Below, in pieces: positions 8,405 through 35,824 of a stretch of DNA of 64,000 bases. The notes beneath the pieces are model-generated. The model saw only the letters and a list, made by a program, of their open reading frames with translations. It did not search any database and was not told the origin of the DNA. The position numbers and the translations under genes are program-made. Each line of letters begins with the position of its first letter. The first letter of the stretch is position 1. Origin of the DNA: Microbacter sp. GSS18 (GTDB lineage Bacteria; Actinomycetota; Actinomycetes; Actinomycetales; Microbacteriaceae); contig CP119753.1 of the NCBI GenBank assembly GCA_029319145.1, forward strand, positions 2,232,001 to 2,296,000, written 5' to 3'.

Positions 8405-8435
8405 GCGCTGTTCGCGACCGCCTATGGTTGCTCAG

Positions 8436-10247
8436 GTGACTTCGCCGACACTCCCCCGTCCCGTTCGGGTCGCGGGTGTAGTCGTCTTGTGGGTGGTGGC
8501 CTCGTTGCTCATCCTGGCCCTGATCGCCCTGGGCTGGGTCGCTGCGCGGGGCGGGATCGCGGCCGACCATCTGCGGAGCGCCCGCGAAGGCGCAGTCGAG
8601 GTCGTCGCTAACATCGACGATCCGACATCCGTCGCGGCATCCATCACCGCCATCGCCGAGGACACGGGCACGGCACGCGGACTCACGAGCGACCCCGCGT
8701 GGCGGATCGTCGAGCAGCTCCCCTGGATCGGGCCCCAGCTGCGAGCGATCTCGACCATCGCAGCATCCGCCGACAACGTTACCCGCGATGCGCTGACCCC
8801 CCTCGCCGAGGTCGCCTCGACGCTGTCGACCGACGCGTTCCGTCCCGTCGACGGGCGGATCAGCCTTGATGGATTCGTCGCGGTGCAGGACGCGGCGGCG
8901 CAAGCGGCGCGATCGATGGGCGGAGCCGCGGATGCGGTCGAACTCGCCAACTCGCCGGGACTGGTCCCGCCGCTCGCCGAGGTCGTCGACGAGGTCTCGG
9001 ACCTGTTCACCGAGACCGCCCACGCCACCGATGCGCTCGCACGGGCATCCGTACTCGTCCCGGCGATGCTCGGGCAGGACGGACCACGCGACTACCTCGT
9101 CATCTTCCAGAACAACGCCGAGTGGCGATCGCTCGGCGGGATCGCCGGCGCCCTCGCCGTTGTCCACACCGATGACGGTGACCTGACCCTGACTGAGCAG
9201 GACTACGCGGCGTCGATGGGGGTGTTCATCCCGCCCGTCATGGACCTGGGCCCCGAACTCACCTCGGTCTATGGCGTGCGGCCGGCGACGTGGATGCACA
9301 ACGTCACGCAGGTGCCCGACTTCGCCGTGAGTGGTGAGCTTGCGCGTGCCATGTGGGCCGAGCGGCACGGCATCGAGGTCGACGGCGTCATCGCTCTCGA
9401 TCCGGTCACGCTGTCGTACATCCTCGAAGCGACGGGGCCGGTGGAGCTGCCGTTGGGCGACACGATCAGCGCCGACAACGCCGTCGAGCTGCTGCTCAAC
9501 GAGGTCTACGTGCGCTACCCCGATCCGGCCGAGCAGAACCAGTTCTTCTCGGACACCACCTCGGCGATCTTCACCACGCTCACGCAGAACGGCTTCGACG
9601 CGAGCGGGATGCTGGCCGGACTCGCCCGCGCCGGCGACGAGTATCGCGTGATGCTGTGGAGCGCGCACGACGACGATCAGGCCGTGCTCGCCGACACCAC
9701 GCTCGCGGGAGCTCCGCTCGAGACGACTCGGCGGATCTCTCCGTTCGGGGTGTACCTCAACGACGGCACCGGCTCGAAGATGGACTACCACCAGACCGTC
9801 GAGACGACGGCGATGTGGGATGCGTGCACGCTCGATGCCGCAGGCGCGGCATCCGGAACCGCCGTCGTCGACGTGACGATCGCCAACGAAGCGCCGGACT
9901 CGGGGCTCGCCGAGTACATCACAGGCGGCGGCGCGTACGGCGTCGAACCCGGGTCGGCATCGACGGTCGGCTACGTCTACCTGCCCGCAGGATTCGAGCT
10001 CGTCGACGCGGCGCTGTCGACCGGAGACGGCTTCGGCGGCGCCTTCATCGACGGCCGGCAGGTGCTCAGTTTCGAGATTCTGCTCGCTCCCGGCGAGTCC
10101 GCGACGGCCCACATCGCGGTGCGGACGACGCAGCCCTCGGGGGCTCAATTGGCGGTTCGGCAGACCCCCACTGTTAACGCAGAAGTAACGCCAGAAGTTG
10201 GACCGTGTCTGATGAGACCCCTAGACTCAACGCAGGGGTCGCCGTAG
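8436..10247 (+). CDS. DUF4012 domain surface protein
   Basis: A roughly 603-residue protein with one N-terminal membrane segment (VVLWVVASLLILALIALGWVA) and a long extracytoplasmic part. The block DYLVIFQNNAEWRSLGGIAG and the following DGDLTL region are typical of DUF4012 proteins, which are common beside actinobacterial polysaccharide genes and have no settled function. I place the start at GTG 8436 because TATGGT at 8423-8428 ends seven bases before it, like the other leaderless genes here; an in-frame ATG at 8424 lies inside that hexamer and has no ribosome site. It begins shortly after the BY-kinase stop. Its 3' end contains the promoter of the next gene. Confidence 0.85.
   Translation: MTSPTLPRPVRVAGVVVLWVVASLLILALIALGWVAARGGIAADHLRSAREGAVEVVANIDDPTSVAASITAIAEDTGTARGLTSDPAWRIVEQLPWIGPQLRAISTIAASADNVTRDALTPLAEVASTLSTDAFRPVDGRISLDGFVAVQDAAAQAARSMGGAADAVELANSPGLVPPLAEVVDEVSDLFTETAHATDALARASVLVPAMLGQDGPRDYLVIFQNNAEWRSLGGIAGALAVVHTDDGDLTLTEQDYAASMGVFIPPVMDLGPELTSVYGVRPATWMHNVTQVPDFAVSGELARAMWAERHGIEVDGVIALDPVTLSYILEATGPVELPLGDTISADNAVELLLNEVYVRYPDPAEQNQFFSDTTSAIFTTLTQNGFDASGMLAGLARAGDEYRVMLWSAHDDDQAVLADTTLAGAPLETTRRISPFGVYLNDGTGSKMDYHQTVETTAMWDACTLDAAGAASGTAVVDVTIANEAPDSGLAEYITGGGAYGVEPGSASTVGYVYLPAGFELVDAALSTGDGFGGAFIDGRQVLSFEILLAPGESATAHIAVRTTQPSGAQLAVRQTPTVNAEVTPEVGPCLMRPLDSTQGSP
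10174..10190 (+). promoter_or_regulatory. MtrA-like direct-repeat operator candidate
   Basis: TTAACG and GTAACG are separated by exactly five bases, an 11-base period. This is the arrangement known for MtrA response-regulator boxes in actinobacteria (two GTAAC-type half sites with N5). It lies just upstream of the -35 of the LPVTG-protein promoter, where an activator would bind. It is inside the coding end of the DUF4012 gene, so chance cannot be excluded. Confidence 0.4.
10198..10227 (+). promoter_or_regulatory. Promoter of the LPVTG surface-protein gene
   Basis: The -35 is TTGGAC (10198-10203), then an 18-base spacer and the -10 TAGACT (10222-10227). The -10 overlaps an inverted repeat GACCCCT/AGGGGTC (10216-10222 and 10234-10240). 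The predicted transcription start near 10234 leaves about 100 bases of leader before ATG 10335. Confidence 0.5.
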
Positions 10248-12445: not shown

Positions 12446-15400
12446 TCACAGGAAGAACTCGTCGGCGAAGACGATCCTCTGCTCGATCGTGAGGCGGCGG
12501 GGAGAATCGGGGCGGCCGGAGGCCGGGTCGGCGGGGAAGCTCTCCCACTCCTCCACGAGCACCCGCCACGACGCCTTGTCGTCCTCGTCCTGGGGGGTGC
12601 GCAGGGCGATGTCGCCGTCGGCCGACAGCTCGCCTTCGCACACGAACCGCCCGTGGGTGAGGTCGAGGTCGCGCAGCGGCAGCTCGCGCTCGACCTTCGT
12701 CTCCCACGCGAGGTCGCCGTCGTCGGGGTCGGCGCGGAACTGCAGCTTCACGATCAGCCGGCGATCGGCGGCGAACCTCTCCGCGTCGGTGCGGTCGGGG
12801 CCACCGTCCTCCGCGCGGCGGCCCGCGAGCCCGCGCAGCAGCACATCGCCGCCCACGGCCACCCGAATCGTGCGCTCGTCGGTCCGCGACACCGAGCACG
12901 TGCGGTTCGGCACCAGCTGGGCGAAGTCCAGCTGCACCGGCTGAGAGAGGTGGGCTCCGGTCACCGAGTGCGGCTGGAAGCGGGCGACGGCGAGCCTGAC
13001 GAACGGCCAGAAGATCGCATCCGCGTCGAACGCGACGTCGACGTACCAGAGGCCGCGGTCGGCGTTGAACTGCGGCCGATAGCCGGCCGCGAGCACCCGC
13101 CGCACCGGGGACGCGGGGTTGGGGCCGAGCGTCGCCGACGGCTTCGGCGGCGCCGGAAGGTTCAGCGGCATCGGATCACCGATCGGCCGGCCCGGACGTG
13201 CGGGACGGTCGTCGTCGCCCTGCCACCGCAGCGAATGGTCGAGCTGCGCCACCGAGATCGAGCGCCGGGCGACCGGTGTGCCGTCCCAGATCGGATCGGC
13301 GCCCCACTGCGAGTGCCACTCGGGCGCATCCTGCGCGGCGGTCTCGCCGGCGGGGTTGAGGAGCACCGCCAGCAGCTCGCCCGACCCCGTGTCGAACCAC
13401 GGCCGCTCGAGATAGATGCGGATGCCGCCGCGGCGGATGTGGCGGCGAGCGGCCGGCTGATCGGGCTCGCCCTCGCGGAACCAGCGCAGCAGCGGCAGCG
13501 TCGAGACCACCAGCGGCAGCGCCGGGACGCTCGTGTTGGGAACGTGCACCGTGAACGGCCGCCCGACGAGGCTCTGGCCGTCGTCGATCGCGGCATCCGA
13601 GCCGTCGGGCGCGATGCCGGTGTCGGGCAGCGTCGCCGGCGTCGCCGGATCGCCCGGCACGGCCGACGGGATCATCGGCACCTGGAATAGCTCGGGCGCG
13701 AAGTACTCCGCGTAGCGCGTCTGCGCCCGCAACCTGTATGTCACGAGCCGGTGCTTGGTGTCGGGCATCGCGTGCTCGCCGCTGTGGGAGCGGATGCGGC
13801 CGAGCTCGGCGACCTCGAAGTCGTGCGGCTCGATCCCGAACGGTACGATCTTCTCCCACGACACCAGCGGCTCGGTGAGGACGACGGCCCGCCCCGGCGC
13901 GAGACCCGGGCCCGTGGGGTCGGCGAGGTCGTCGACATCGTCGACCCACGCAGCCTCGATCGTGAGGTGCTCGGTCGACGCTCCGTGCGCAGTGAACGTC
14001 GCGTGCAGCGTCGCCAGGCTGCTGCCGAGGAATCGATCGACGAACGGGTCGTCGATGAGCACCGGGCGCTCGACCGGGCGCGGCGTCGCGTTGACGAACA
14101 CCACCCCCTCCCCCGGGGTCAGCGACCAGAGCCGGCCGTCGACGACCTCGTCCTTCAAGTCGAGGGTCGCCAGCGCCGAGGTCGACACCATCGACCACAT
14201 GGCGAGGTGATCGAGGTACGCGGGATCGAGCGAACTCGAGAAGACGACCTTGACCCGCTCCCCCGGCGGGAGCGTGATCGTCAGGGTGTGATCCACCAGG
14301 TCGGCCGACGCCGGTCCCGACTCCAGCCGGACGAACAGCGGCTGCTTCTCGGGCCAGTCCCCCGGGTACTGCACCGTCAGCCCCTCGCTGCGGTGCGGGA
14401 ACGGGATCGGAATGGTGAAGCCCGCGTCGACGAAGGTCAGTGACAGCCCCGCCGCGACAGGGTCGGGCAGGTAGGGCAGCCGCAGCTTCTCGTTCGTGTG
14501 GACGACGTACTGCCCGGGGCCGGGGGCGTTGCCCTGCGCGGGAGGGGGCCCGGGCTGCACCTCGTCGAGTGTGCGCAGCGTCGCGGGATCCGCACCGGGA
14601 TCGGCGACGAGCGCGATGTCGAGCTGGTCGAGTCCCGCCGACAGCGGAGCGCTCAGGTCGACGACGGTCTTGCTGAAGAAGCTGCCGTCCTCGCGCAGCG
14701 ACCACGCGAGCACCTGCTCACGCGCGGTGTCGCGGTCGACCCCGGGCGCGGTGAGGGCCTTGTCGAACAGTCCGTGCAACTCGACGTCGCCCTGCGCGAT
14801 GCGCGGCGGCGCGACGTGACGCCGACCCGCGTCGCGCAGGCCGTGGGCGGCGACGAACCCCGGATGCCGCGACTCGACGTCGACGAAGAAGGCCTCGCCC
14901 TCGAGCACGACCGGCTCGCCCGTGACCTGATCGACGCCGACCCCCGAGCGCACCACGATCGTGCGCAGCGACTCGCCCTCGGTGAAGCGGGCGTAGGCCA
15001 CGATCGCGGGCGGCGGCACCGGATGCCAGCGCAGGAACGGGAACGGCGACGTGACCGTGCGCAGGGCCTGCGCGAGCGCGCCCGGCCGGACTGCGGCGCC
15101 GACGGATGCCGCCCCCACCGCCACGGCGTGCGAGGCGAGCAGATCGATCTGGTCGCGGACGTCGACCCGGACCCCGGTGAGGTCCATCGGCGCCGTCGAT
15201 TGGGACAGCGCCTCCCACGCCGCCTCGGACAGCCGCGGCCGGCGCAGCACTCCGACGCCCGAGCGGACCGTCAGCGCCCCCGCTCCGATCGCGGCGACGA
15301 CCGCCTCCCGGATGTCGTCGGGCAGATCCTCGACCGGCACGGCACCGCTGCCCGCGCGTCGCGAGACGCGCAGCCGTGAGCGCGCAGCCAGGCGCACGGC

Positions 15401-17341
15401 CCGCTGCAGATCGGCGACGCCCTCGGCCGCGAGCAGCGAGTTCACTGCGCGCCGCCGCGCCAGCGGACGCGTGACCGCCGGCCGGTTCACCGCCGCTTCG
15501 ATCGCGACGGGCGGCAGCGGCTGCGGATTGAGCGTGTGGGTGCGCACCTCGCCGGCGAGGTCGACCGCCCACGCGCGGAAGCTGTAGGCGCGGCCGTAGC
15601 GGAGCCGCGGGAGCGTGCCGGCGGCCGCACGGTGGGTGACCCGGAAGGGATGCGGGGGTGTGCGGGGGTCGAGCGCGGCCGGGTCGTCGACCGCGGTCTC
15701 GGTCTGCCGGAACCCGGTGGGTGTGTTCGGGTCGGGCACGGACGCGTCGACGATCGTCTTGCCTGGGCGCGGGGCCGACAGCGACCATCCCTCCCACCCG
15801 AACACCGTCTCGTGGATGTGGATGTCGGCATCGGGCGCCGGCTGCGCCTCGGGCTCGCCGTCCGGGCCGCGCGGCGGCCGCTCCGACGCCGCCGTCCCCT
15901 GCAGGTAGCCCTCGTTCGGGACCTCGTCAGCGACGGCAGTGGGGAAGCCGTCGACCTTGACGGTGCTGATGCGGGAGTGCAGACTCGCCCACTTCTTGAC
16001 CGCGTCGTCCCACACCTCGATCCGCAGGCCCTTGGTCACCTGGTCGGCGAACAGCGGCGCCACGGCGGAATCGTTCGCCCGCACCGGCGAGGTCAGCTGC
16101 CCCTCGAGCGCCTTCTGCCCGGTGAGGGCCGCGTGGGCGGCATCCGATCGCCCCGCCCGTGTCACGATGAGCCCCGGCGCGCGCATTGCCGGCGTCGCCG
16201 CGGTGACGTCGTCGCCGTTCTGCTCGGACGCGATCGTACGCACGAAGCCGAGCAGGTAGTTGTAGTCCTTCAGTGCCGAGCCGTCGGGGTCGACGTCCAT
16301 CACCAGGTACGGCGACTCGCCGAGGGTGACGGCCCCGTCGACGCTCGTGTCGTCGCCCTGCCGCGTCGCGACGACCATCGTGCCGCGGCCCGGGTGGGCG
16401 ACCATCGAGCGCGGGAAGCTGCCGAGCGTCAGGTCGCCGCCGATCGACAGCTCGACGGCGAGCGTCCGCGCCCGCGCCAACCGGGCGGGGTCGCCCTTCA
16501 GCCGCACCGACAGACGCAGCGCGCGCAGCAGGCCGGGGTGGTCGCCGGCGGCCGCGACGCGCTTGTGGAACTCGCCCGCGACCTCGGCGAGCCGCGGCGG
16601 CGGCGTGGTGCGCTTGTCCGGCGGCTCGCCGCGGGTGTCGGGGGGCGACGCGGGCTCGAAGAACCGCGCGGCGGTGTGCATCGTCGTCAGCGCCGCGACC
16701 GCCCACGGCACCGCCGCCCCGGCATCCGGCGTGGTGCCGGGCGTGGTCATGAACCCGCGCAGCCGCTCGACGCCGGCGCCCGGGTCGTCGAGCAGCTCGC
16801 GCAGCCGCCCCTCGGAGAACTCCCGGATCGACATCGGGGCGTCCACCCCGCCGGTGCTCTCGCGCACGCGTCCCGGGACGGCGAGCGCGCCGCTCTCGCC
16901 CAGCCGGCGGAACGCCGGTCCGAGCAGGTGCTCGCTGGGCGCGGGCGGGCTGTCGGGTGACAGGAACGCGGTCTGCAGGTGCAGGGCCTTCGCGACCATC
17001 GCCGTCATGCCGGCGTTGTAGGTGACCTTGTTGCGGTTGCTCCAGTCCGGCACGGTGTTCGCCCGCACCGGGGTGTGGGGCGGGAACGCGGCGCTCCACA
17101 CCCCGGCGTCGACGCCCGAGTCGATGCGCACGGTGTCCATCGGTCCGTCCTGGTCCCAGATGGTGAACTCGCCCTGCTCGTCGATGCGGTGCGCCCAGTC
17201 CAGGAACAGCGGGAACTGCGACAGCACCGCCTGCGGGTCTGCGGTGTCGATCTTGGGCGTGATGAACGCGGTGACGTGCCACTCCGCCCCCGCCGCCGAC
17301 GAATGCGGCAGCGCGACGACGACGAACCGTTCGGTGCTCAT
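12446..17341 (-). CDS. Giant 1631-residue protein of unknown function (giant protein B)
   Basis: The start is ATG 17341, in an ATGA overlap with the stop of the upstream giant gene, so the pair is translationally coupled; open sequence upstream of 17341 is the shadow of that gene. There is no signal peptide and no membrane helix. Residues 1-500 look globular and begin RFVVVALPHSS. A Trp/Tyr-rich beta block follows (WEGWSLSAPRPG near 515, RAYSFRAWAVDLAGE near 585, fibronectin-III-like). Residues 620-760 are Ala/Arg-rich and probably helical. The rest is a long series of beta-type segments, including GIRIYLERPWFDTG. The C-terminus reads RRLTIEQRIVFADEFFL. I recognise no catalytic motif. Size, modularity and lack of a signal suggest a large structural or effector protein. 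Confidence 0.75.
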   Translation of the reverse strand: MSTERFVVVALPHSSAAGAEWHVTAFITPKIDTADPQAVLSQFPLFLDWAHRIDEQGEFTIWDQDGPMDTVRIDSGVDAGVWSAAFPPHTPVRANTVPDWSNRNKVTYNAGMTAMVAKALHLQTAFLSPDSPPAPSEHLLGPAFRRLGESGALAVPGRVRESTGGVDAPMSIREFSEGRLRELLDDPGAGVERLRGFMTTPGTTPDAGAAVPWAVAALTTMHTAARFFEPASPPDTRGEPPDKRTTPPPRLAEVAGEFHKRVAAAGDHPGLLRALRLSVRLKGDPARLARARTLAVELSIGGDLTLGSFPRSMVAHPGRGTMVVATRQGDDTSVDGAVTLGESPYLVMDVDPDGSALKDYNYLLGFVRTIASEQNGDDVTAATPAMRAPGLIVTRAGRSDAAHAALTGQKALEGQLTSPVRANDSAVAPLFADQVTKGLRIEVWDDAVKKWASLHSRISTVKVDGFPTAVADEVPNEGYLQGTAASERPPRGPDGEPEAQPAPDADIHIHETVFGWEGWSLSAPRPGKTIVDASVPDPNTPTGFRQTETAVDDPAALDPRTPPHPFRVTHRAAAGTLPRLRYGRAYSFRAWAVDLAGEVRTHTLNPQPLPPVAIEAAVNRPAVTRPLARRRAVNSLLAAEGVADLQRAVRLAARSRLRVSRRAGSGAVPVEDLPDDIREAVVAAIGAGALTVRSGVGVLRRPRLSEAAWEALSQSTAPMDLTGVRVDVRDQIDLLASHAVAVGAASVGAAVRPGALAQALRTVTSPFPFLRWHPVPPPAIVAYARFTEGESLRTIVVRSGVGVDQVTGEPVVLEGEAFFVDVESRHPGFVAAHGLRDAGRRHVAPPRIAQGDVELHGLFDKALTAPGVDRDTAREQVLAWSLREDGSFFSKTVVDLSAPLSAGLDQLDIALVADPGADPATLRTLDEVQPGPPPAQGNAPGPGQYVVHTNEKLRLPYLPDPVAAGLSLTFVDAGFTIPIPFPHRSEGLTVQYPGDWPEKQPLFVRLESGPASADLVDHTLTITLPPGERVKVVFSSSLDPAYLDHLAMWSMVSTSALATLDLKDEVVDGRLWSLTPGEGVVFVNATPRPVERPVLIDDPFVDRFLGSSLATLHATFTAHGASTEHLTIEAAWVDDVDDLADPTGPGLAPGRAVVLTEPLVSWEKIVPFGIEPHDFEVAELGRIRSHSGEHAMPDTKHRLVTYRLRAQTRYAEYFAPELFQVPMIPSAVPGDPATPATLPDTGIAPDGSDAAIDDGQSLVGRPFTVHVPNTSVPALPLVVSTLPLLRWFREGEPDQPAARRHIRRGGIRIYLERPWFDTGSGELLAVLLNPAGETAAQDAPEWHSQWGADPIWDGTPVARRSISVAQLDHSLRWQGDDDRPARPGRPIGDPMPLNLPAPPKPSATLGPNPASPVRRVLAAGYRPQFNADRGLWYVDVAFDADAIFWPFVRLAVARFQPHSVTGAHLSQPVQLDFAQLVPNRTCSVSRTDERTIRVAVGGDVLLRGLAGRRAEDGGPDRTDAERFAADRRLIVKLQFRADPDDGDLAWETKVERELPLRDLDLTHGRFVCEGELSADGDIALRTPQDEDDKASWRVLVEEWESFPADPASGRPDSPRRLTIEQRIVFADEFFL

Positions 17342-20300
17342 GCCGGCACCTCCTCTGGTGCGAATGCGTCCAGATATCGATCCCAGGCGAGATGCGTGCC
17401 GCCGGGTTCGAGATAGACATCCCGGAACGTCGGGTCGCCGTTGGAGCCCGCGAACTGCCGCTCGGCCTCGATGCGGACCGTGGCCGAGAAGAACAGCACC
17501 TCGACCTTGACCGTGATGCTCGCGCGGCCGATGACCTTGCCGGTCTGCGGGTAGTAGTCCAGCGCCATCAGCATCTCGATCGACGCCGAGATGAGCCCCA
17601 GCACGTCGACCTCGCCGCGCAGGCGCACGAAGCCCGAGATGAGGCCGTTGTCGTCCTGCATCCGCATGTACACGCCGATGGCCGCCGAGATCGAGCCCGA
17701 CGCGACGCCGAAGTCGACGGACAAGTAGGCCCCCGCCTCGAGCGAGAGCTCGAGGATCTCGACGCGCTCGGGCGACAGGCGCAGCGCGAAGAACCCGCCG
17801 CCACCCAGGAAGCACACCGACAGCACGAACGGCTTCTCACGCGTGCAGAAGTTGAACCCGACGGTGACGATCTCGCCGAGGAACGGCACGTGCACGTCGG
17901 CACCGAGCGAGATGTTCGACAGCGAGAACACGCCGATCGCGAGGTTCGGCAGCGCCAGCGAGAACCCGGCCTTGACCCCCTCGGTAGACACCTCCATGAA
18001 CGGCGGATCGCTGAAGCCGTCCAGCGGGATGAGGTCCTTGATGTCGTTGATGAACGACAGGGCACCCTGGAACTCCAGGTCGCCCAGCACGACGTCGACC
18101 TCGGTCTTGCCGGTCGCGCTCGCCCGGAACGACATGTGCTCGAACGGCACCTTCAGCAGGCGCGCGCCCGGCAGCAGGTCGAGCGTGAAGCCGAGGAGCT
18201 CGGCGAGGACCTCGAACCGCGGCGTGCCGCCCCCGGCCGGGATCCTGCCCTCGATGGCGATGGTGAAATGCGGATGGTCATCGGCGAACGTGATGATCGG
18301 ACCGCCCTGCGGCCACGCCGCGAGCTCCGGCTCCCAGTCGTACCGGAACGTCATGTCCTTGCCTGCGACCGGGATCGCGTCGCGCAGCGCCTTCAGCACG
18401 TCGAGCATGGGCTCCGCGGCGAGCGCGGTGTCGATCGCCGCGATGAGGGTCTCGAGCCTGCTGCGCACGAACGGGGTCGCCGCCGGCAGAGCCTGGCGGA
18501 GCTTGTCGGCCGCGGCGCGCAGCTGTCCGAGCATCGTCACGAGGTGCACCGGGTCGAAGTCGCTCGTCAGCTGCGTGAGCTCGGCGTCGAGCTGGTCGAG
18601 CAGCACCTTGGCGTCCTGCGCCGGTCCCGCCCCGTTCGCAGCATCCGCCAGCTTCTGCACGCGGTCGCGCATCTCGGCGATGTCGGTGACGAGCTGCTGG
18701 AGTGCGTCGAGGGATTTCGTGATGACGCTCGGGGCGTTCTCGAACGCCGAGTCGGGGATGAGGTCGGCGATGCTCACGAGACCGAACAGACGCGGGAGCG
18801 CGCCCTTGAGGGCCTTGGCGGGATCGAACACGGCCGCCGTCGCCTGCGCGAGGTCGCCGACCGGACCCTGCTCGGTGCTGAGCGCCCGCAGCGGGAGGTT
18901 CGGCTGCAAGAATCCGCCGCCCCGATCGCTGCCGACCTCGCCGTTCAGTTCGGGCTGGGCCGGGAGGCCCGGGACCGGCGGCGTCTTGCCGAAGGCCAGG
19001 ACCGGCGTGTCGGCCAGGGCGTCGTCGTCTGCGGGACCGGGCTGGCCGAAGGCATGCAGCACATGCTTGCCATAGGAGGCGCCGTCGTTCACGATGTCGT
19101 TGGTCACGATCGCGCCCCACACCCCGACGGCCGGATCCTGCGTGCCGTCGCGGAAGTGGGCCTCGTACGTGATCGGCACGGCGCCGAGCCCGGTGAGGCG
19201 CTGCGCGGCCGGCAGCACGACGCGCGCCGAGCTCATGCGTGGGGTCGAGGTTCCCGCCGTCGCCTCGCCGCGCAGCAGGATGGCTTGGGTCTGCAGCTTC
19301 GCGTCGCCGCCGGCGGTGGGCGGGGCGAAGTCGACGTCCTGCCCGTCGAAGGGCAGGATCCGCTCGCTGGCCTTGTCGTAGATGCCGTCGAGAGACGTGA
19401 ACTGCCCGAACGACTCACGCACCCACATCAGCGGGGCGCGCGTCTTGCCGTGCGCGTGGATGCGGTCCGTGGTGTCCCACGAGAACACGAACGGCACACC
19501 GCCCAGCCGCGGCCAGAACCACGTGTCGATCGATTCGTCCGCGGGCCCGTTCTGCGGGTCGTCGAGGGTCGGTGTCACGATCGGCGCGAGGGCGACCGAC
19601 GTGAACGGCAGATCCGACAGGCCGTAGTCTCGGCGCACGTCGCCGAGGACGATGAACATGCGCTGGTACAGCGCCGCCGCCGGCTTCGTGAACGCGTTGG
19701 TGCCGGTGCCGCGGATCTTGCGCTCGGTGATCTTCACGAGCGTGGCGCGGTGCCCGAGTGGATACAGATACCCCGGGTACATCACGCGGACGAACTGGTC
19801 GCGCCCCTGCGGCGCGATGTGGTCCCACTTCAGGATCGACTGCAGGCGCTGATTCGCGGGCAGATGCGGGTGCGACAGGCCCGAGTATCCCAAGGTCTCC
19901 CACGTGCCGTGGAAGTCCAGCCACGCGCCGAGCGCCGAGAGGTGGAGCCGGTCCGCGCGCACCGGCCGCGGTTCGATCCTGTCGCCGCCGACCGACCACG
20001 TCTCGGCGGTCTGCCGCACGATCTGGTGGCGGTCGGCACGGGTGAGCGACCCCTTGAACGGCCGCTCGTTCGTCGACGACGGCGTGCTCAGCGGTCCCGG
20101 CGGCCGGTCGGCGTCCGATGCCTTCCACGCATTGCCGAGCCCGTCGCGATCGCGCGCCCACAGCGCCCGCACCACGCGCATATAGCCCGGATGCTCGTCG
20201 AGCGACCCGTCCCGGCGCCGGTACGACAGCCGCGTGTGCCACAGCTCGACGTGCTCGGAGTCGGCGGCGCTGCGGACAGGGCCGGCCGCATGCGCCCAGC

Positions 20301-21117
20301 CGGCGTGGGCGTTCGGCGAGATGATCAGCCGGTACGGCGCCTCGATCGCTGTCTCGTCGTCGGCGGGCGGAGCACTGAAGTCGTTCAGCCGGCGCAGGTC
20401 CGGCGGGCGGATGCGGCTGCCAGACAGGCCGAAGCCTCTCAGGTGCTCGAGCAGGCGCTCGTCGCGCTCCCGCGCCACGATGGGCTTGCGTGCGGCCTCG
20501 CGCCGGACCGCGGCGAGGATCTGATTGCGGATCGCGGGGGACGCGGCGTCCCGCGCGATGACGATCCGCTTCTCGGCCGCGTCGGGCTCGGCCAGGACGA
20601 TGCGGTTCGCGTGGATCAGCACCTTGAGGTCGACGCTCAGCAGGAACGCGATGCCGAGGTCGGCCGGATCGTCCTCGGGCTCGGGGGCGTCGGGTCGTGC
20701 ACGATCGGCGAGCGCGAGCGGGAACTTCTGGATCGCCGCGAGGATGCCCTCGGTGCTCAGCTGGGCGCCGTCGTTCTCGGGGATCTCGAACACGAGACGG
20801 CTCGCGCGCGCCGGTGCGAAGCCGACAGGAAGGTCGTGGGACGCGGTCGTCGCGGACGGCTTGAGCGTCTTCGTCGGGTCGTCCGGGTCGGGGATGACCG
20901 TTTTCGGCGGTCCGTCGTAGACGGCTTCCTCGTGCGCGTGCTGGAACGAGAAGTGCACGATCATGCGCGAATGGTCGGTGACCGCCATCGCCCACACGGG
21001 CTCGGTCGGCACGCCGCGCCGCCGTTCGCACCCGCGGAACTCGACACGGAACTGCAACAGGTCTGCCGGGCGCACGACGTCGAGGATGATCGGCGTCTGC
21101 GCATCGTCCGGGGGCAT
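17338..21117 (-). CDS. Giant 1259-residue protein of unknown function (giant protein A)
   Basis: ATG 21117 is backed by GAGGAGGGG; a longer open frame upstream has no such support and no family-like sequence. The N-terminal 690 residues look globular and include VWAMAVTDHSRMIVHFSF and GYMRVVRALWARDRDG. A helical, coiled-coil-like block lies at about 785-880 (SLDALQQLVTDIAEMRDRVQ, DQLDAELTQL). Residues 925-1259 form a long amphipathic beta domain with FVLSVCFLGGGGFFALRL, FGVASGSISAAIGVYMRM and VKVEVLFFSATVRIEAER. From memory this part resembles the DUF6603-type beta domain, which I could not verify. There is no signal peptide. It is coupled to giant protein B by ATGA and is probably its partner. 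Confidence 0.75.
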   Translation of the reverse strand: MPPDDAQTPIILDVVRPADLLQFRVEFRGCERRRGVPTEPVWAMAVTDHSRMIVHFSFQHAHEEAVYDGPPKTVIPDPDDPTKTLKPSATTASHDLPVGFAPARASRLVFEIPENDGAQLSTEGILAAIQKFPLALADRARPDAPEPEDDPADLGIAFLLSVDLKVLIHANRIVLAEPDAAEKRIVIARDAASPAIRNQILAAVRREAARKPIVARERDERLLEHLRGFGLSGSRIRPPDLRRLNDFSAPPADDETAIEAPYRLIISPNAHAGWAHAAGPVRSAADSEHVELWHTRLSYRRRDGSLDEHPGYMRVVRALWARDRDGLGNAWKASDADRPPGPLSTPSSTNERPFKGSLTRADRHQIVRQTAETWSVGGDRIEPRPVRADRLHLSALGAWLDFHGTWETLGYSGLSHPHLPANQRLQSILKWDHIAPQGRDQFVRVMYPGYLYPLGHRATLVKITERKIRGTGTNAFTKPAAALYQRMFIVLGDVRRDYGLSDLPFTSVALAPIVTPTLDDPQNGPADESIDTWFWPRLGGVPFVFSWDTTDRIHAHGKTRAPLMWVRESFGQFTSLDGIYDKASERILPFDGQDVDFAPPTAGGDAKLQTQAILLRGEATAGTSTPRMSSARVVLPAAQRLTGLGAVPITYEAHFRDGTQDPAVGVWGAIVTNDIVNDGASYGKHVLHAFGQPGPADDDALADTPVLAFGKTPPVPGLPAQPELNGEVGSDRGGGFLQPNLPLRALSTEQGPVGDLAQATAAVFDPAKALKGALPRLFGLVSIADLIPDSAFENAPSVITKSLDALQQLVTDIAEMRDRVQKLADAANGAGPAQDAKVLLDQLDAELTQLTSDFDPVHLVTMLGQLRAAADKLRQALPAATPFVRSRLETLIAAIDTALAAEPMLDVLKALRDAIPVAGKDMTFRYDWEPELAAWPQGGPIITFADDHPHFTIAIEGRIPAGGGTPRFEVLAELLGFTLDLLPGARLLKVPFEHMSFRASATGKTEVDVVLGDLEFQGALSFINDIKDLIPLDGFSDPPFMEVSTEGVKAGFSLALPNLAIGVFSLSNISLGADVHVPFLGEIVTVGFNFCTREKPFVLSVCFLGGGGFFALRLSPERVEILELSLEAGAYLSVDFGVASGSISAAIGVYMRMQDDNGLISGFVRLRGEVDVLGLISASIEMLMALDYYPQTGKVIGRASITVKVEVLFFSATVRIEAERQFAGSNGDPTFRDVYLEPGGTHLAWDRYLDAFAPEEVPA

Positions 21118-21540
21118 GGCCCCTCCTCGGTATTGCGCGGCCGAGGCGCTCCCAAGAGTGGATCGGCCCTTCATTGGTTCAGGGAACCGCGCCACCGCAC
21201 TGCCCGTCACGCGGTTCGCGCACCCGCGCGGGCGGCCCGCGTCGATGCGTGCGTCATACCTCGTCGGACCGTCCGATCCCCATCGCGTCCCCGCCGGCCG
21301 ATCGTCCTGGCCACAGGCTAGACCCGTCCTCGGGGACCGACAAGAGGGCGGCGGGGGCGCCCCGCTACAGGCACGTGATCGCCCAGCAGCACGGCCATAC
21401 CCGAGCAGGCAGACCGGCACGAGCGCAGCGGCGCGCTCGACGAACCCTGAACGCACGGTATCCGAGGGGGCCTTACGCGACCTCGTCCTCGTGAGTAGCG
21501 TGGGCCACGGGGACTGCGCATGTGAATTCCAGGTGATTCG
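21118..21540 (+). other. 423-base divergent intergenic region between giant genes and cassette
   Basis: No convincing gene is seen. A TAGCGT (21496-21501) with a weak TTACGC about 18 bases upstream could be the promoter of the rightward cassette; the ATG 21541 has AGG seven bases upstream. A 15-base G/C hairpin (GCGGGG-GCG-CCCCGC) lies near 21350. The region should hold promoters for both directions. Confidence 0.5.
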
Positions 21541-23112
21541 ATGCGAGGCAGGACGAGAGGGATCGCCGCGACGGCCGCGGCCCTGGTCGCGCTCGGCCTG
21601 TGCGCGGCGTCCGCGCCCGCGATCGGCGCCGAACCGGGCGGAGGCACTGCGGATGCCGCACCGAGCCGGGCGATCGGCGCGCAGCCGGCGACGAGTGCCG
21701 GCGGGGCGCTTCCGGCGCGGGTGATCGAGTCGAGCGGGCCGCTCACGCTGATCGACATCACGCCCGACCTCGCCTGCACGGTGCAGCACATCGATGACGC
21801 CCTGCCCGTGCTCTCCGAGAGGGCCGGATGCGGCACCCTCGCGGCCCGGGGCGAGCGCGTCTACGGGCCGAGGGGCATCCTCGAAGGTTCTCTCGGGCAG
21901 AACTACACCCCGTGGGATCCGCAGGGCGATCAGGGCTTCAGCGGCAGCGGCACCCCCGACGACCCCTACGCCATCACGAGTCAGACGGACGTCGGCTTCA
22001 TCCGCGTCACGCAGATCGACAGCTACGTCGTGGGTGAGGAGTCGTACACCACCGACATCATCGTCACCGGCCTCGAAGACGAGGAGTTCGGAGTCGAGAC
22101 CACCATCTACCACGCCGGGAACTGCCAGGTAGGGGGCTCGCTCGAAGGCCTGGGCTCGTACAGTCCGGACACGGGCGCCGTCAGCTGCCTCGCCGCGAAT
22201 GACGCGGGAACGATCGAAGCGGGCGGCCGCGTGCTTCAGTTCGTCCCCCTCACGCCCGGCAGCAATTACCTGTACGGCTCGGCGGACCGCGTCTGGGGCG
22301 CCATCTCGACGCGGCGCCCGCTGCCCGACTCCGTCCTCAGCGCCGACGCCGTGACCACCAACGCCATCGCCCTGAGCTGGACGTTCCTCGCCAGTCCCGA
22401 CCCGACGGTGCTGTCGCTGCGGACGGCCCTCGCCCGAACCGAGGCGCAGGAGCTGCCCACCCAGATCTTCCTGAGCACCGATGCAGCCACCGTCGGCGAC
22501 GACGTGCAGGTCACCGCGGTGATCGAGAACCCCAACGGGTTCCGGCAGGAGATCGACCCCCTCATCGTCACCCTGCCGCCCGGCGTGTCCTACGTCGAGG
22601 GAACGGCCTCGCCGATCGGGGAGCCCACGATCACCGGATCGAGGCTGGACTTCGGCACCGTGACGCTGGCGCCCGACACTCCCTTCGAGTTCGTGTTCGC
22701 CGTGAACGCCACGAGCGCCGGGCGCGGCGCGATCGAGCTGTCGGGCGTCACCAGCAGCGGTGCGCCCGTGCGCCCCGCCGTCGGGGGGATCACGGTGCGG
22801 GACGCGCCGCGACCGCCGATCGAGCCCACAGACCGAGGCGGAGGAGGCGAGATCGACCCGCGCCTGGTCGCCTGGGGCGCGGGCGGGGCGGTGCTGCTGA
22901 TCATCGTGGCCGTCGCGACGATCGCCGCGATCCGGGCCCCGCGCCGGCTGCAGAAGAAGCTCGTGCGCGAGCACGTCCGGCTCATGCCGCGACAGGCCAC
23001 CACCATCCACAACAGATCGACGCCCGACGTGCCCGCGCCGACACCGCCGTCGTTCCATCTCGCCGGCAAGCCCGGCGAATGGGAGCATCGCGTGATCGAG
23101 GAGGAGCCATGA
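21541..23112 (+). CDS. Exported single-pass membrane protein with Ig-like domain (cassette 1, gene a)
   Basis: A 523-residue protein. A Sec signal peptide spans about residues 1-30 (TRGIAATAAALVALGLCAAS, cleavage near AIGA). The exported part carries two acidic beta domains; residues 320-420 read like a DUF11/Ig-type repeat (FLSTDAATVGDDVQVTAVIE, NPNGFRQEIDPLIVTLPPG). A membrane segment at about 442-465 is followed by a basic cytosolic tail containing the motif LVREHVRLMPRQ, repeated almost exactly in the paralogue at 24311. Four Cys residues could form disulfides. The stop overlaps the start of the next gene in ATGA. It is probably a receptor or anchor whose tail binds the co-translated cytosolic partner; the partner role is an inference. 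Confidence 0.78.
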   Translation: MRGRTRGIAATAAALVALGLCAASAPAIGAEPGGGTADAAPSRAIGAQPATSAGGALPARVIESSGPLTLIDITPDLACTVQHIDDALPVLSERAGCGTLAARGERVYGPRGILEGSLGQNYTPWDPQGDQGFSGSGTPDDPYAITSQTDVGFIRVTQIDSYVVGEESYTTDIIVTGLEDEEFGVETTIYHAGNCQVGGSLEGLGSYSPDTGAVSCLAANDAGTIEAGGRVLQFVPLTPGSNYLYGSADRVWGAISTRRPLPDSVLSADAVTTNAIALSWTFLASPDPTVLSLRTALARTEAQELPTQIFLSTDAATVGDDVQVTAVIENPNGFRQEIDPLIVTLPPGVSYVEGTASPIGEPTITGSRLDFGTVTLAPDTPFEFVFAVNATSAGRGAIELSGVTSSGAPVRPAVGGITVRDAPRPPIEPTDRGGGGEIDPRLVAWGAGGAVLLIIVAVATIAAIRAPRRLQKKLVREHVRLMPRQATTIHNRSTPDVPAPTPPSFHLAGKPGEWEHRVIEEEP

Positions 23113-24062
23113 CCACCGCCACCGCGTCCACGACGGTGAAGGACGTCCTGCTGCCCGAGGACGAACCGCCCCCGAAGCTGCGGGAGCAGGCCGCGAAGGC
23201 CGCCGAGCACGGCGGCGTCGCCGACCAGATCGCGCGCCTCACCGCCATCGGGCTCGACATCGTCGGCGCCCGCATCGGGCACGTCGTGGGCGACCTGCTG
23301 GGCGCCGACCTGGGCGGAATCATCGGCTCGGCGCTGACGAAGAACCAGAAGATCGTCGCCGCGATCACCAAGACCCAGAACGACCCGAAGGCCGAAGAGG
23401 TCGTGACGCTCGCGGATCAGAAGCTCGAGTCGAGCTACAAGCCCTCGGTCGACGTGATCGTCGACGAGAAGAAGGTCACCAGCATCCCGTTCGAGGTGAG
23501 CCTCGAGACGAAGATCGAGGGCGGACTCATCGTCGTGAAGGGCGGTGAGATCGTCGCCGTGCGCACCGGCCGCGGAACCATCACCGGGACGCTGAAGTGC
23601 GAGGGGGTCGAGGTCGCCAAGAAGAAGGTCGACTACGACCTCGCGGGAATCCTGCGGATGCCGTCGGCGGACACCTCCGCGACGCGGGGTGCCGCAGGAC
23701 CGGTGGTGACCGGAGCTGCGGCGAGCGCCGCGCGAGCAGCCGGCGCGGCCGCACCGCTGCCGTCCGGGCAGCCGAGCGCACCGGCGCCCGCGCAAGCCCC
23801 GCGCCCGCAGGCATCCCAGCCGCACGCGCCGGCGCAGCCTGCCGGCGCCGCCCCCGCGCAGCCTGCCGGCGCCGCCCCCGCACCCTCACCCTCGATCCCG
23901 CCGCCACCGACCCCGCCGCCCGTCGGCTTCATCCAGGACGGCTGGCGGTTCACGGCATCCGGTCAGTGGGAGCGCGTCACGCACTACCTTCCGGGCGACA
24001 TCGTCAACGGGCACCGGCTCAACGCCGCGGGCAACGCGTGGGAGCCGCTGCCGCCGGGGTGA
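23109..24062 (+). CDS. Cytosolic partner protein with Pro/Ala linker (cassette 1, gene b)
   Basis: A 317-residue protein with no signal. Order of parts: a short N-terminal motif TVKDVLLPEDEPPP, a Gly-rich helical block GLDIVGARIGHVVGDLLGAD, a beta domain (VTLADQKLESSYKPSVDVIV to VDYDLAGILRMP), a Pro/Ala linker at about 200-262 with two exact 24-base repeats at 23832-23879, then a C-terminal module ending GHRLNAAGNAWEPLPPG. Each structured part is matched in the paralogue at 25795; only the linker differs. ATG 23109 overlaps the upstream stop, so it is made with the membrane protein. I recognise no enzyme motif; a structural or adaptor role is likely. Confidence 0.75.
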   Translation: MTTATASTTVKDVLLPEDEPPPKLREQAAKAAEHGGVADQIARLTAIGLDIVGARIGHVVGDLLGADLGGIIGSALTKNQKIVAAITKTQNDPKAEEVVTLADQKLESSYKPSVDVIVDEKKVTSIPFEVSLETKIEGGLIVVKGGEIVAVRTGRGTITGTLKCEGVEVAKKKVDYDLAGILRMPSADTSATRGAAGPVVTGAAASAARAAGAAAPLPSGQPSAPAPAQAPRPQASQPHAPAQPAGAAPAQPAGAAPAPSPSIPPPPTPPPVGFIQDGWRFTASGQWERVTHYLPGDIVNGHRLNAAGNAWEPLPPG

Positions 24063-24074
24063 GTCCGCCGCGGC

Positions 24075-24196
24075 TTCCGTCGCCGTGCGTTGCCGGGCCG
24101 GCATCCGTCGCCGGGCGTTGCCGGGCCGGCATCCGTCGCCGCCCGTTGCGGAGCTCGTTGCGTCGCCCGGCGTTGCCGAGCTCGCTGCGTCGACGG
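24075..24196 (+). repeat. 27-28 bp tandem repeat between the two cassettes
   Basis: Four full copies and one partial copy of a unit like ATCCGTCGCCGGGCGTTGCC plus GGGCCGGC start at 24075, 24103, 24131, 24158 and 24185. Copies 1 and 2 are nearly identical; copies 3-5 have diverged. The repeat lies immediately after a stop codon and holds no gene. Confidence 0.8.
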
Positions 24197-24310
24197 ACCT
24201 GGTGCCGCGGCGCGGGCAGGAGCATCATGGCCGTGAGAGCACCGCGGCTCACCCGATCCGCCGCCCGGCGACGGTGCTCGAGCAGCGTGCTGATCGTGTC
24301 TGGGGGCTCG

Positions 24311-25798
24311 ATGACGAAGCGAACGAGGCGCTCCACCGGCATCCGCTTCTCGCGCGCCTTCGCGGTCGGCGCCGCGGCCGCGTTCGCCGGGGCCGCACTG
24401 CTGACCCCGGTGGCGCAGGCAGTGACCGGCACCGAAGACCTGAGCGGTGCGGTGACACCCATCGAGCTCGCCCAGAAGCTGGCCGGCCCCGGCGTCACCG
24501 TGTCGAACGTCGAGTACACCGGCAGCGACGTCTCTGCGGGGACGTTCATCGAGACCGACCCGGCCGTCTTCGGGTTCGATGACGGCGTCGTGCTCTCGAC
24601 CGGAGCCGTGCGCGACCTCGGGGGCGCCAACGACCGGACGAACACGACGACGCAGCTGAACACACCCGGCGACGAGCAGCTCAGCGCCCTCGCCGGGTAC
24701 GACACGTTCGACGCGACGGTGCTCGCGTTCGACTTCGTCCCGGTCGCCGACACGGTCTACATCAGCTACGTCTTCGCGTCGGAGGAGTACAGCGAGTACG
24801 CGAACGGCACCTTCAACGACGTGTTCGCGTTCTTCGTCAACGGCGAGAACTGCGCCGTCACCGACACCGGCGACCCCGTGTCGATCAACACGATCAACGG
24901 CGGCAACCCCGACGACGGCAGTGCGCCGGTGCGACCCGACCTGTTCCGCGACAACACCGACGCCACCCTCGAGATCCAGCCCGACGGCCTCACCGTGGTG
25001 CTCGTATGCGAGGTCGGTGTGCAGCCGAATGAGCCCAACACCATGCGGCTCGCCATCGCCGACGGGAGCGACGACCAGTGGGACTCGTGGGTGCTGCTGG
25101 CCGCGCGCGGCATCACGACCGTCGCGCCGACCGTCCCGCTGCCCGCCACCCTCACCATCGGCGAGCCGGATGTCAGCGTCGGCGACCCGGTGACCGTCAC
25201 CGCCACCGTCGACAACCCCAACGAGGCCGAGGAGCAGGTGTCGCAGCTGCGCGTCGACCTGCCCGCGGGCATGGCGTACGTGCCCGGGTCGGCATCCGGC
25301 GTCGGGGAGCCGCAGGTGTCGGGACAGAGCCTGGAATTCGCGGATGCCGAAGCCATCGCCGCCGGCGACACGCTCACCTTCAGCTTCGCCGTGATCCCGT
25401 CGGCGCCCGGGTCGGCGACCATCGGAATCAGCGGAGAGACCGCGTCCGGGACCGTCATCGTCGCCGGAGCGGCGGACGTCAACGCGCGCGCCGTCATCGT
25501 GATCCCGCCGCCGCCTCCGCCTGCGCCGTCGTTCCCGTGGGTGCCGGTGCTCGCCGGCGGAGCCGCCGTCGTCCTCGCCGCCGCCGTTGCCACGACGGTC
25601 GCCGCGAACACGCCCCGCGCCCGGCAGACACGGCTGCTGCGCAAGCACGTGCGCCTCACGCCGCGGCAGGACACCGTCGGGAGCTCCGCGGCGACGCCCG
25701 CCTCGAAGACGCCGGCGACGCCCAAGGCCCCGACATTCCGCCTCGTCGCGAGACAGGGAACCGTCGACCACAGCATCCACCTGGAGGACCGATCATGA
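24311..25798 (+). CDS. Exported choice-of-anchor L type membrane protein (cassette 2, gene a)
   Basis: A 495-residue protein. A basic start (TKRTRRSTGIRFSR) leads into a signal sequence ending PVAQAVTG. The next 220 residues match the choice-of-anchor L domain: GVVLSTGAVRDLGGANDRTN, LAFDFVPVADTVYISYVFAS, EEYSEYANGTFNDVFAFFVN, and PVSINTINGG. An Ig/DUF11-like repeat follows, similar to cassette 1 gene a (VSVGDPVTVTATVDNPNEAE), then a poly-Pro stretch, a membrane segment at about 415-435 and a cytosolic tail with LLRKHVRLTPRQ. ATG 24311 has GGGGG five bases upstream. The stop overlaps the next ATG (25795). The adhesion-like ectodomain suggests a surface role. Confidence 0.82.
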   Translation: MTKRTRRSTGIRFSRAFAVGAAAAFAGAALLTPVAQAVTGTEDLSGAVTPIELAQKLAGPGVTVSNVEYTGSDVSAGTFIETDPAVFGFDDGVVLSTGAVRDLGGANDRTNTTTQLNTPGDEQLSALAGYDTFDATVLAFDFVPVADTVYISYVFASEEYSEYANGTFNDVFAFFVNGENCAVTDTGDPVSINTINGGNPDDGSAPVRPDLFRDNTDATLEIQPDGLTVVLVCEVGVQPNEPNTMRLAIADGSDDQWDSWVLLAARGITTVAPTVPLPATLTIGEPDVSVGDPVTVTATVDNPNEAEEQVSQLRVDLPAGMAYVPGSASGVGEPQVSGQSLEFADAEAIAAGDTLTFSFAVIPSAPGSATIGISGETASGTVIVAGAADVNARAVIVIPPPPPPAPSFPWVPVLAGGAAVVLAAAVATTVAANTPRARQTRLLRKHVRLTPRQDTVGSSAATPASKTPATPKAPTFRLVARQGTVDHSIHLEDRS

Positions 25799-26766
25799 GC
25801 ACACCGGTGATGAGCCCGGCGGCCGTCCCGAACTCGGTCAAAGACCTGCTGATGCCGGGCCGAGACATCCCGCCCGAGCTGTCGCAGGCCGTCGGAACGG
25901 TGGCCCAGAGCAGCGGACTCGGCGACGCGCTGTCGAAGCTCACACCGCTCGGGCTCGACATCCTCGGCAAGCGCATCGGCGCTCTGCTCGGCGACATGCT
26001 GAACGTCGACCTCGGCGGGATGCTCGGCGGAGCGCTCATGAAGAACGAGGAACTCGCGGACGCCCTGCGCGCGACCGCCGAGACACCCGGCTCCGAAGCG
26101 ATCGTGACCCTCGCCGACCAGACCCTGCAGTCCGGCTACTCCCCCGCCGTCGACATCGTGGTCAACGAGGTGCCGCTCGTGAGCGTTGCCTTCGACGTAT
26201 CCCTCGCCACGCTGATCGAGGGCGCGCTGGTCGTCGTGCGCGACGGACGGATGACGGCCGTGCAGGCCGGACGCGCGCACCTGACGGCGTCGCTGTCATG
26301 CCAGGGAACTCCGATCGCCGCCCGCGAGGTGGAGCTGAACCTGCCGGCGGTGCTGCGGCTGCCCGAGGCGGTGGCCGGTGGAGCGGGAACGGCCGTGGGT
26401 GCGGTGAGTGCGGCGGCGGGTGTGGCAGGGGTGCAGGCGGCTCCGGAGGCCGGGGGGCCGGGGGCGGGAGTGCCGGGGGCGGCCGTACCGGGGACGCGAG
26501 CGCCTGGGGCCGCGGGGCCGGCGCCCGGGGCGGCGGTGCCCGGGGCGGCGACTGGCGCGGGGGCGGCTGGCGCGGGGGCGCCCGAGGCGGAGGTTCTGGC
26601 GGCATCGGCATCCGTCGTTCCGCCGGTCGGGCTCATCGCCAACGGGTGGCGCTTCACAGCCGCGGGCGCGTGGGAGCCGGCGACGCAGGCGCTGCCGGGC
26701 GACATCGTCAACGGCCACCGCCTCAACGCCGACGGCACGGCGTGGGAGCCGCTGCCGCCCGAGTGA
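25795..26766 (+). CDS. Cytosolic partner protein (cassette 2, gene b)
   Basis: A 323-residue paralogue of the protein at 23109. It matches part for part: SVKDLLMPGRDIPPE, GLDILGKRIGALLGDMLNVD, a beta domain from VTLADQTLQSGYSPAVDIVV to LNLPAVLRLP, then a Gly/Ala/Pro linker of about 85 residues built from PGA/PGT units (bases 26380-26620), and the C-terminal module GWRFTAAGAWEP with GDIVNGHRLNADGTAWEPLP. Translation is coupled to the membrane protein by ATGA. The linker sequence differs from cassette 1, so the linkers evolve faster than the structured ends. Function unknown. Confidence 0.75.
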   Translation: MSTPVMSPAAVPNSVKDLLMPGRDIPPELSQAVGTVAQSSGLGDALSKLTPLGLDILGKRIGALLGDMLNVDLGGMLGGALMKNEELADALRATAETPGSEAIVTLADQTLQSGYSPAVDIVVNEVPLVSVAFDVSLATLIEGALVVVRDGRMTAVQAGRAHLTASLSCQGTPIAAREVELNLPAVLRLPEAVAGGAGTAVGAVSAAAGVAGVQAAPEAGGPGAGVPGAAVPGTRAPGAAGPAPGAAVPGAATGAGAAGAGAPEAEVLAASASVVPPVGLIANGWRFTAAGAWEPATQALPGDIVNGHRLNADGTAWEPLPPE

Positions 26767-31908: not shown

Positions 31909-32087
31909 CGGATCACGGCACGATGACGGACCACCCCGCGACGACCGACCACCGCGGGATGACCGATGACCGCCCGATGACCGACGGCCGCCCGATGACC
32001 GATGACCGCCCGACGACCGATAACCGCGCGATGACCGATGACCGCGCGATGACTCACGGCCGCAGGATGAGGACGGGCCGGCGGTGA
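31905..32087 (+). CDS. 60-residue hexapeptide-repeat ORF bridging two sulfotransferases
   Basis: ATG 31905 overlaps the stop of sulfotransferase 1 (ATGA), and the stop 32085-32087 overlaps the GTG of sulfotransferase 2 (GTGA). The 60 residues are exactly ten hexapeptides of the form MTDxRx (MTDHGT, MTDHPA, TTDHRG, MTDDRP, MTDGRP, MTDDRP, TTDNRA, MTDDRA, MTHGRR, MRTGRR), an 18-base DNA repeat. The peptide would be hydrophilic and disordered, rich in Asp, Arg and His. It may be a real small protein, or simply a repeat expansion that keeps ribosomes flowing between the two genes. Confidence 0.55.
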   Translation: MTDHGTMTDHPATTDHRGMTDDRPMTDGRPMTDDRPTTDNRAMTDDRAMTHGRRMRTGRR

Positions 32088-33364: not shown

Positions 33365-33373
33365 CGCCGAGCC

Positions 33374-34066: not shown

Positions 34067-34213
34067 TTCGATGCCAGCCTATGCCCGCCGGTGTTTCGGC
34101 GGTATGACTTTCGGCCGGTGCTGGGCGAGCGTCGAGGCGGCTCACATGAACCACCAGGAACCCTCGCCCGGCCGGCCCCGACACACCGTCACGACACCAG
34201 GCGCAGGGCGCGA

Positions 34214-34219
34214 TACGGT
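34214..34219 (+). promoter_or_regulatory. -10 element of the signal peptidase gene (leaderless)
   Basis: TACGGT ends six bases before GTG 34226, placing the transcription start at the start codon. Confidence 0.5.
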
Positions 34220-34225
34220 GTCGAG

Positions 34226-34933: not shown

Positions 34934-34936
34934 CCC

Positions 34937-35791: not shown

Positions 35792-35824
35792 GCCGTCAGC
35801 CTATCGGCGCCGGCTCGCGGCGCC

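What the first reader, a model, noticed from the sequence alone, without database searches (positions are those of the whole stretch)
12446..26766. Candidate undescribed system: two coupled giant proteins divergent from a duplicated two-gene cassette
Two giant cytosolic proteins (1631 and 1259 aa, ATGA-coupled, no signal or membrane helix) face two consecutive copies of a pair: an exported, membrane-anchored beta-rich protein with a conserved basic tail, and a cytosolic protein with a variable linker. Coupling inside each pair and the shared 423-base divergent region suggest one functional unit spanning the membrane. I recognise no known system; that they act together is an inference.
Basis: partly seen in the sequence, partly recalled or inferred. 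Interest (0 to 1): 0.85.

Follow-up and report, generated by a model that had tools for sequence, protein, structure and literature searches.

The report
Undescribed two-gene giant protein operon
Two very large bacterial proteins of unknown function travel together as a two-gene unit across several bacterial phyla and match no catalogued family, while the membrane-protein cassette beside them here is a separate gene pair.

Summary
The genes are real and correctly placed, but "one six-gene system" is not supported. The giants form a genuine, undescribed two-gene operon: B (1259 aa, upstream) and A (1631 aa) are adjacent in 80 of 80 relatives from named genomes, gap median 13 bp in 77 of 80, and their distance matrices correlate at r = 0.98 (68 pairs). 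The pair occurs in several phyla, with signs of inter-phylum transfer, and in 13 of 396 actinobacterial genomes. Neither giant reaches a Pfam, NCBIfam, PADLOC or PHROGs family. A is predicted as Ig/FnIII-like sandwiches; B ends in an amphipathic porin-like barrel. No third gene is conserved. Window B lacks an export signal, but 9 of 98 B proteins examined start with what I read as a Tat signal, while A does not. The cassette is absent from all 80 loci; in 246 genomes A and cassette b share only the window's own. The cassette is a conserved pair of its own. Proposed mechanism, inferred: one folded A-B complex whose barrel contacts lipid, exported by Tat in some lineages.

The parts
17338..21117 (-). 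Giant B, 1259 aa, first gene of the conserved two-gene operon
   Evidence: homologues; A adjacent in 80 of 80 loci
17446..18021 (-). B residues 1033-1224: predicted up-and-down beta barrel, porin-like fold, mostly amphipathic strands; inside the best conserved part of B
18376..18720 (-). B residues 800-914: predicted bundle of helices before the barrel, variable in length among relatives
12446..17341 (-). Giant A, 1631 aa, second gene, ATGA overlap with B
   Evidence: homologues
12449..14086 (-). A residues 1086-1631: predicted consecutive Ig/FnIII-like beta sandwiches
21118..21540 (.). 423-base divergent region; this arrangement was seen in no other giant locus examined
21541..23112 (+). Cassette gene C1a: exported single-pass protein, DUF11-like stalk, TM, basic cytoplasmic tail (separate from the giants)
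23109..24062 (+). Cassette gene C1b: cytosolic partner, conserved N-terminal domain, proline/alanine-rich linker, conserved C-terminal motif
24311..25798 (+). Cassette gene C2a: choice-of-anchor L ectodomain, DUF11-like stalk, TM, basic tail
25795..26766 (+). Cassette gene C2b: cytosolic partner, second copy

Best explanation
Giants B and A are the two obligate subunits of one horizontally mobile accessory complex, encoded as a self-sufficient two-gene operon. Shown: they are adjacent, in fixed order, inherited as a pair, and share no third gene. Inferred: the two fold and assemble in the cytosol. A, a chain of Ig/FnIII-like sandwiches, is a scaffold or recognition arm. B ends in an amphipathic beta barrel that is the working end and contacts lipid, holding or moving a hydrophobic cargo or inserting into a membrane. 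In some divergent lineages B begins with a Tat-like signal and A has none, so the folded pair is probably exported through Tat with A carried along. The window's pair has no signal and either stays inside or leaves by an unknown route. The divergent cassette is an unrelated neighbour.
Against: The mechanism is untested. 4 of 15 strands show little difference between faces. Foldseek matches to porins have low TM-scores (about 0.25 by target) and rmsd near 20. Sandwich chains and up-and-down barrels are common folds. Joint inheritance follows from linkage and does not prove a complex. Most B proteins (89 of 98) have no recognised signal. One divergent B-like protein (L019, E 1e-20) has no A match in its 20.9-kb stretch. 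MAG binning errors may inflate the signs of transfer.
Confidence: 0.45

Rival explanations
1. One reading: giants and cassette are one six-gene unit spanning the membrane.
For: Divergent adjacency in this genome and coupling inside each pair.
Against: Cassette absent from 80 of 80 giant loci and from all 12 other B-positive genomes of the 396; giant A absent from the 7 other cassette-positive genomes of the 246. The cassette pair exists alone elsewhere.
Confidence: 0.04
2. B and A are an abortive-infection type defence module whose barrel permeabilises the membrane after an infection signal recognised by the sandwich domains.
For: Patchy (13 of 396 genomes), mobile, stand-alone, porin-like barrel. 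One divergent relative lies beside dpdE/dpdF on an Agrobacterium vitis plasmid.
Against: No PADLOC match for B and one sub-threshold line for A at E 0.03. Of 130 nearest neighbour genes few match PADLOC models, mostly ones I take as generic (methyltransferase or OmpA-like), and the commonest Pfam neighbours are metabolic; no baseline was computed. Tat-like starts on some B proteins do not fit an intracellular effector. No hit in 50,697 phage records or viral contigs.
Confidence: 0.12
3. The pair is an extracellular or surface complex throughout (adhesive fibre, matrix or secreted effector complex), exported by Tat in some lineages and by an unrecognised route in the rest; the barrel is structural.
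For: Chains of Ig-like domains are typical of surface proteins. Tat-like starts on B in L014, L018, L020, L021, L059, L060, L082, L119 and L139, tatA behind A in L021.
Against: 89 of 98 B proteins, the window's among them, show no such signal; no secretion gene recurs nearby.
Confidence: 0.25
4. B is a remote member of the DUF6603 superfamily, and the operon is a two-gene version of the DUF6603 giant-protein operons (compatible with the explanations above).
For: DUF6603 proteins (about 770-1330 aa in the six loci read) also sit in rows of very large hypothetical proteins in bacteria and a haloarchaeon. B's barrel end and DUF6603 align collinearly over 189 columns.
Against: That profile match has P 0.056, not significant. 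No PF20248 match in B (E up to 1), in 29 barrel-region relatives (E up to 5) or in the own genome. A does not match the DUF6603 partner (P 0.66).
Confidence: 0.3

Closest known systems
DUF6603 (PF20248) giant-protein operons
   Same: Rows of very large hypothetical proteins in tight same-strand operons, on plasmids and chromosomes, in Actinomycetota, Pseudomonadota and a haloarchaeon; 0 papers of the library hold the term DUF6603.
   Different: No significant sequence relation to B or A; more genes per operon; different partner families.
Outer-membrane porins such as OmpG
   Same: Up-and-down amphipathic beta barrel at B's C-terminus.
   Different: B is a 1259-aa protein, the barrel being roughly its last fifth; the window's B has no signal peptide; it occurs also in Actinomycetota; some relatives carry Tat-like rather than Sec signals.
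Large lipid-transfer proteins (microsomal triglyceride transfer protein, lipovitellin)
   Same: Appear among Foldseek's five best matches to B; also combine beta sheets and a helical domain.
   Different: Low probability (0.25 and 0.16) and TM-score under 0.1; no sequence relation seen; bacterial.
Choice-of-anchor L surface proteins (NF038133), cassette only
   Same: C2a ectodomain matches at E 4.5e-65.
   Different: The conserved part of the cassette is the TM, the basic tail and the cytosolic partner b; C1a has another ectodomain.

Membership tests
DUF6603 (PF20248) | Match to the PF20248 profile | tested here: not met
   No match in B at E up to 1, in 0 of 29 barrel-region relatives at E up to 5, none in the own genome
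DUF6603 (PF20248) | Remote homology by profile-profile comparison | tested here: inconclusive
   P 0.056, 189 columns, alignments of 29 and 6 rows
DUF6603 (PF20248) | Encoded in an operon of very large hypothetical proteins | tested here: met
   for DUF6603; for the A-B pair
Outer-membrane beta-barrel porins | Up-and-down amphipathic beta barrel | tested here: inconclusive
Outer-membrane beta-barrel porins | N-terminal signal peptide for export | tested here: not met
   No hydrophobic N-terminus in the window's B or in the frame before it
Known anti-phage defence systems (PADLOC-DB 2.0.0) | Match of a component to a defence model | tested here: not met
   B none, A one line at E 0.03
Known anti-phage defence systems (PADLOC-DB 2.0.0) | Location in defence islands | tested here: inconclusive
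   Few PADLOC matches among 130 neighbours, no baseline
Large lipid-transfer proteins (MTP, lipovitellin) | Same fold with a lipid cavity | tested here: inconclusive
   Weak Foldseek matches only
Tat substrates | N-terminal twin-arginine motif followed by a hydrophobic stretch | tested here: not met
   Not in the window's B or A; flagged in 6 of 74 and 6 of 24 B relatives, 9 of these 12 read by me as Tat-like
Choice-of-anchor L proteins (NF038133) | Match to the profile over its cut-off | tested here: met
   C2a 219 bits against cut-off 27; C1a does not match

The most novel reading that the evidence does not exclude
A previously undescribed, cross-phylum, horizontally mobile two-protein machine: a giant (B) carrying a porin-like barrel and its obligate sandwich-chain partner (A), assembled in the cytosol, which handles hydrophobic cargo or opens a barrel pore without the usual outer-membrane assembly route, and which in some lineages is sent out whole through Tat with A as a passenger.
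Probability: 0.35. Interest if true: 0.85.

Novelty: categorically new. Interest (0 to 1): 0.58.

Why it matters
A pair of genes totalling almost 9 kb that has stayed together across several phyla is probably under strong joint selection, yet neither protein is in a curated family searched here. If the barrel touches lipid, it would be an unusual use of a porin-like fold in a giant soluble-looking protein; if B carries A through Tat, it would be a very large passenger complex. The defined pair, its conserved barrel end and its named hosts make the question directly testable. The work also separates a second conserved pair, the anchored surface protein and its cytosolic partner.

Tried and rejected
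One six-gene system: rejected on independent occurrence. Phage origin: no match in 50,697 phage records; in viral contigs 61 stretches matched a pattern and none was a relative; best PHROGs lines E 0.25 (B) and 0.18 (A). Defence: no model match. Known domains: none over a cut-off. PDB sequence search: the 60 shown of 349 matches to B fall on the helical region and look like coiled-coil composition; A had none below E 0.13. Conserved third gene: none; the largest group outside A and B spans 9 of 80 loci at scattered distances, and a gene of 494-658 aa about 300 bp upstream recurs only in five loci that are all Achromobacter. A-B common ancestry: not seen by profile. Sigma-70-type promoters in the divergent gap: 0 found, about 0 expected. 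A contig search with B alone found no relative among 42 pattern matches. Papers: searches; the last four were seen as listings with the starts of abstracts, 78 and 113 returned nothing; no paper was opened. In them I saw no description of this pair; most subscription journals and preprints are not held, and the pair has no name to search by.

Weak points and mends. A first test for Tat-like starts (0 of 74 B, 0 of 71 A) was too strict: it would have missed the two starts I had seen in L014 and L018. A relaxed test that recovers both flags 6 of 74 and 6 of 24 B and 1 of 71 A; I read 9 of the 12 B as Tat-like (L107, L125, L132 not) and the one A (L073) as not. Open frames begin at the longest start, so two B frames with a hydrophobic start (L134, L125) may include upstream sequence. 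The A3 alignment held one row in a wrong frame (L058) and was not used for a conclusion. P0004, P0005 and P0006 carry extra residues before the true starts (used or in the blast queries), and C2a lacked its first 13 residues. The gap count leaves out L091, L092 and L105, which have several matching frames; the mirror tree used 66 of 80 loci plus the window and L058. Only 10 of 13 cassette-b relatives were examined for the a gene (not H27, G114, G078). 130 of the 131 picked neighbours were scanned, several from one genus. Of the 16 plasmid records with B, five were not read (H2, H13-H16).

Full report
WHAT IS THERE. The window is G000:C1:2232001-2296000 of a complete 4.03-Mb genome. Its phylum is Actinomycetota by inference: two genomes drawn as same-phylum have contigs of the same length as named Nitriliruptorales/Nitriliruptoraceae contigs. 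The giants B (17338..21117, -) and A (12446..17341, -) overlap by ATGA. On the other strand, after 423 bases, come two copies of a two-gene cassette, each with an ATGA-type overlap. The order of transcription is B then A, and C2a starts at 24311.

THE GIANTS BELONG TOGETHER. A search with B alone found, besides the own genome, one relative at 34% in 150 genomes drawn from the family. Protein searches of plasmids found B in 16 records and A in 9, and all 9 A records are among the 16. In the eight A-positive records read (among them Cupriavidus metallidurans CH34, Diaphorobacter, Rhizobium and Streptomyces) the two are adjacent, B being split over two frames in L012. Of three more divergent records, L020 and L021 have A-like matches behind B, and L019 has a B-like protein and no A match. 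A profile of B found 13 of 396 phylum genomes including the own one. A profile of B's C-terminal part found 87 relatives in genome contigs, of which 80 loci were kept. In 80 of these 80 loci A follows B on the same strand (recounted). In 77 of the 80 the gap could be measured: -4 to 99 bases, median 13, with three 4-base overlaps. For the 12 other B-positive phylum genomes, A was found in the same stretch in 12, the match in G241 being weak (B E 5.6e-9, A E 2e-5). Starting from A in 246 class genomes, 7 including the own one match; the other 6 all have B adjacent, G640 only as fragments. Distance matrices of A and B correlate at r 0.984 over 68 pairs; 200 label shuffles reach at most 0.21. Linkage alone could give this, so it shows joint inheritance rather than physical interaction.

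DISTRIBUTION. A tree of 68 B proteins puts the window's B in a 99%-supported set of four with the same-genus genome, Phycicoccus and a Lysobacterales MAG, and more broadly in a mixed Actinomycetota/Pseudomonadota group; Pseudomonadota needs six label changes. Long branches and MAG binning are caveats; the join of the window with the same-genus row is flagged as a possible long-branch artefact. No gene other than A recurs widely near B: the largest neighbour group spans 9 of 80 loci at scattered distances, and one upstream gene recurs only within Achromobacter. The commonest Pfam families of 130 nearest genes are metabolic, with few defence-model matches. The pair is therefore self-contained, patchy and mobile.

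WHERE THE PROTEINS ACT. The window's B and A have no signal or anchor, nor has the frame before B. A relaxed test that recovers two known cases flags 6 of 74 B proteins in the named loci and 6 of 24 others; I read nine of the twelve as Tat-like: L082 and L139 (Bacteroidota), L119 (Myxococcota), L014, L018, L020, L021, L059 and L060 (motif recalled). The A proteins of the named loci show none that I accept (1 of 71 flagged). In L021, whose B has such a start, a tatA gene follows A directly. The simplest reading is that in these lineages B and A are exported already folded, A as a passenger.

MECHANISM. Shown: two genes, fixed order, inherited together, no conserved helper. Inferred: A is a scaffold and B's barrel the lipid-contacting end of one complex that assembles in the cytosol and in some lineages is exported through Tat. 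Whether the barrel carries cargo or inserts is open. A defence pore is less likely given Tat-like starts in relatives and no defence-island signal.

THE CASSETTE IS SEPARATE. In 396 phylum genomes 3, including the own one, match cassette b, and neither of the other two carries B. In 246 class genomes 8, including the own one, match b, and none of the other seven carries A. A family search gave two other marginal matches at E 1.6e-4 and 9.9e-4 in 150 genomes, and plasmids gave two Embleya records. In 8 of 10 relatives outside the window examined (L152, L153, L154, L168-L172) b is directly preceded by a frame ending in a hydrophobic segment, a basic tail and a closing acidic motif; L153 is cut by the contig end; L173 and L174 do not show it. 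The likely reading is an anchored surface protein with an exchangeable ectodomain (choice-of-anchor L in C2a) whose cytoplasmic tail is bound by b. The binding is inference.

COMPARISON WITH KNOWN SYSTEMS. The nearest kind by organisation is the DUF6603 operon, also rows of giant hypothetical proteins; no paper of the library holds the term. Sequence tests of kinship are negative or inconclusive. I do not file the pair in that family. I rate it categorically new because no described kind fits. This is a statement about the collections searched, not a claim of a known new function.

Noticed in passing
window 21541-26766; L152, L153, L154, L168-L172: The cassette is a conserved pair of its own in Actinomycetota: single-pass surface protein with conserved basic juxtamembrane tail plus cytosolic partner b. 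Ectodomains differ.
   Followed up: partly
L014, L018, L020, L021, L059, L060, L082, L119, L139: Divergent B proteins start with what I read as Tat signals while their A partners seem to have none; a tatA gene follows A in L021.
   Followed up: partly
L156-L161: DUF6603 proteins lie in operons with several other giant hypothetical proteins, one of which aligns across the six operons (alignment A13), including a haloarchaeal plasmid.
   Followed up: partly
L020, L021: Divergent Rhizobiaceae plasmid relatives have B enlarged to about 3,040-3,050 aa; one is beside dpdE/dpdF, the other beside type IV secretion genes.
   Followed up: no
window 32084-38369: Sulfotransferase, signal peptidase (S26) and PqqD-domain genes form a further unusual neighbourhood.
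   Followed up: no
window 7007-10247: Wzz/ParA-type chain-length protein followed by a DUF4012 protein, likely a polysaccharide locus.
   Followed up: no
   Followed up: no
L017:15602-20494: A Streptomyces nigrescens A protein has an insert that I read as peptidoglycan-binding-like (motif recalled, not scanned).
   Followed up: no
L011:24878-25756: A PatG-domain protein lies just downstream of the giants on a Streptomyces plasmid.
   Followed up: no
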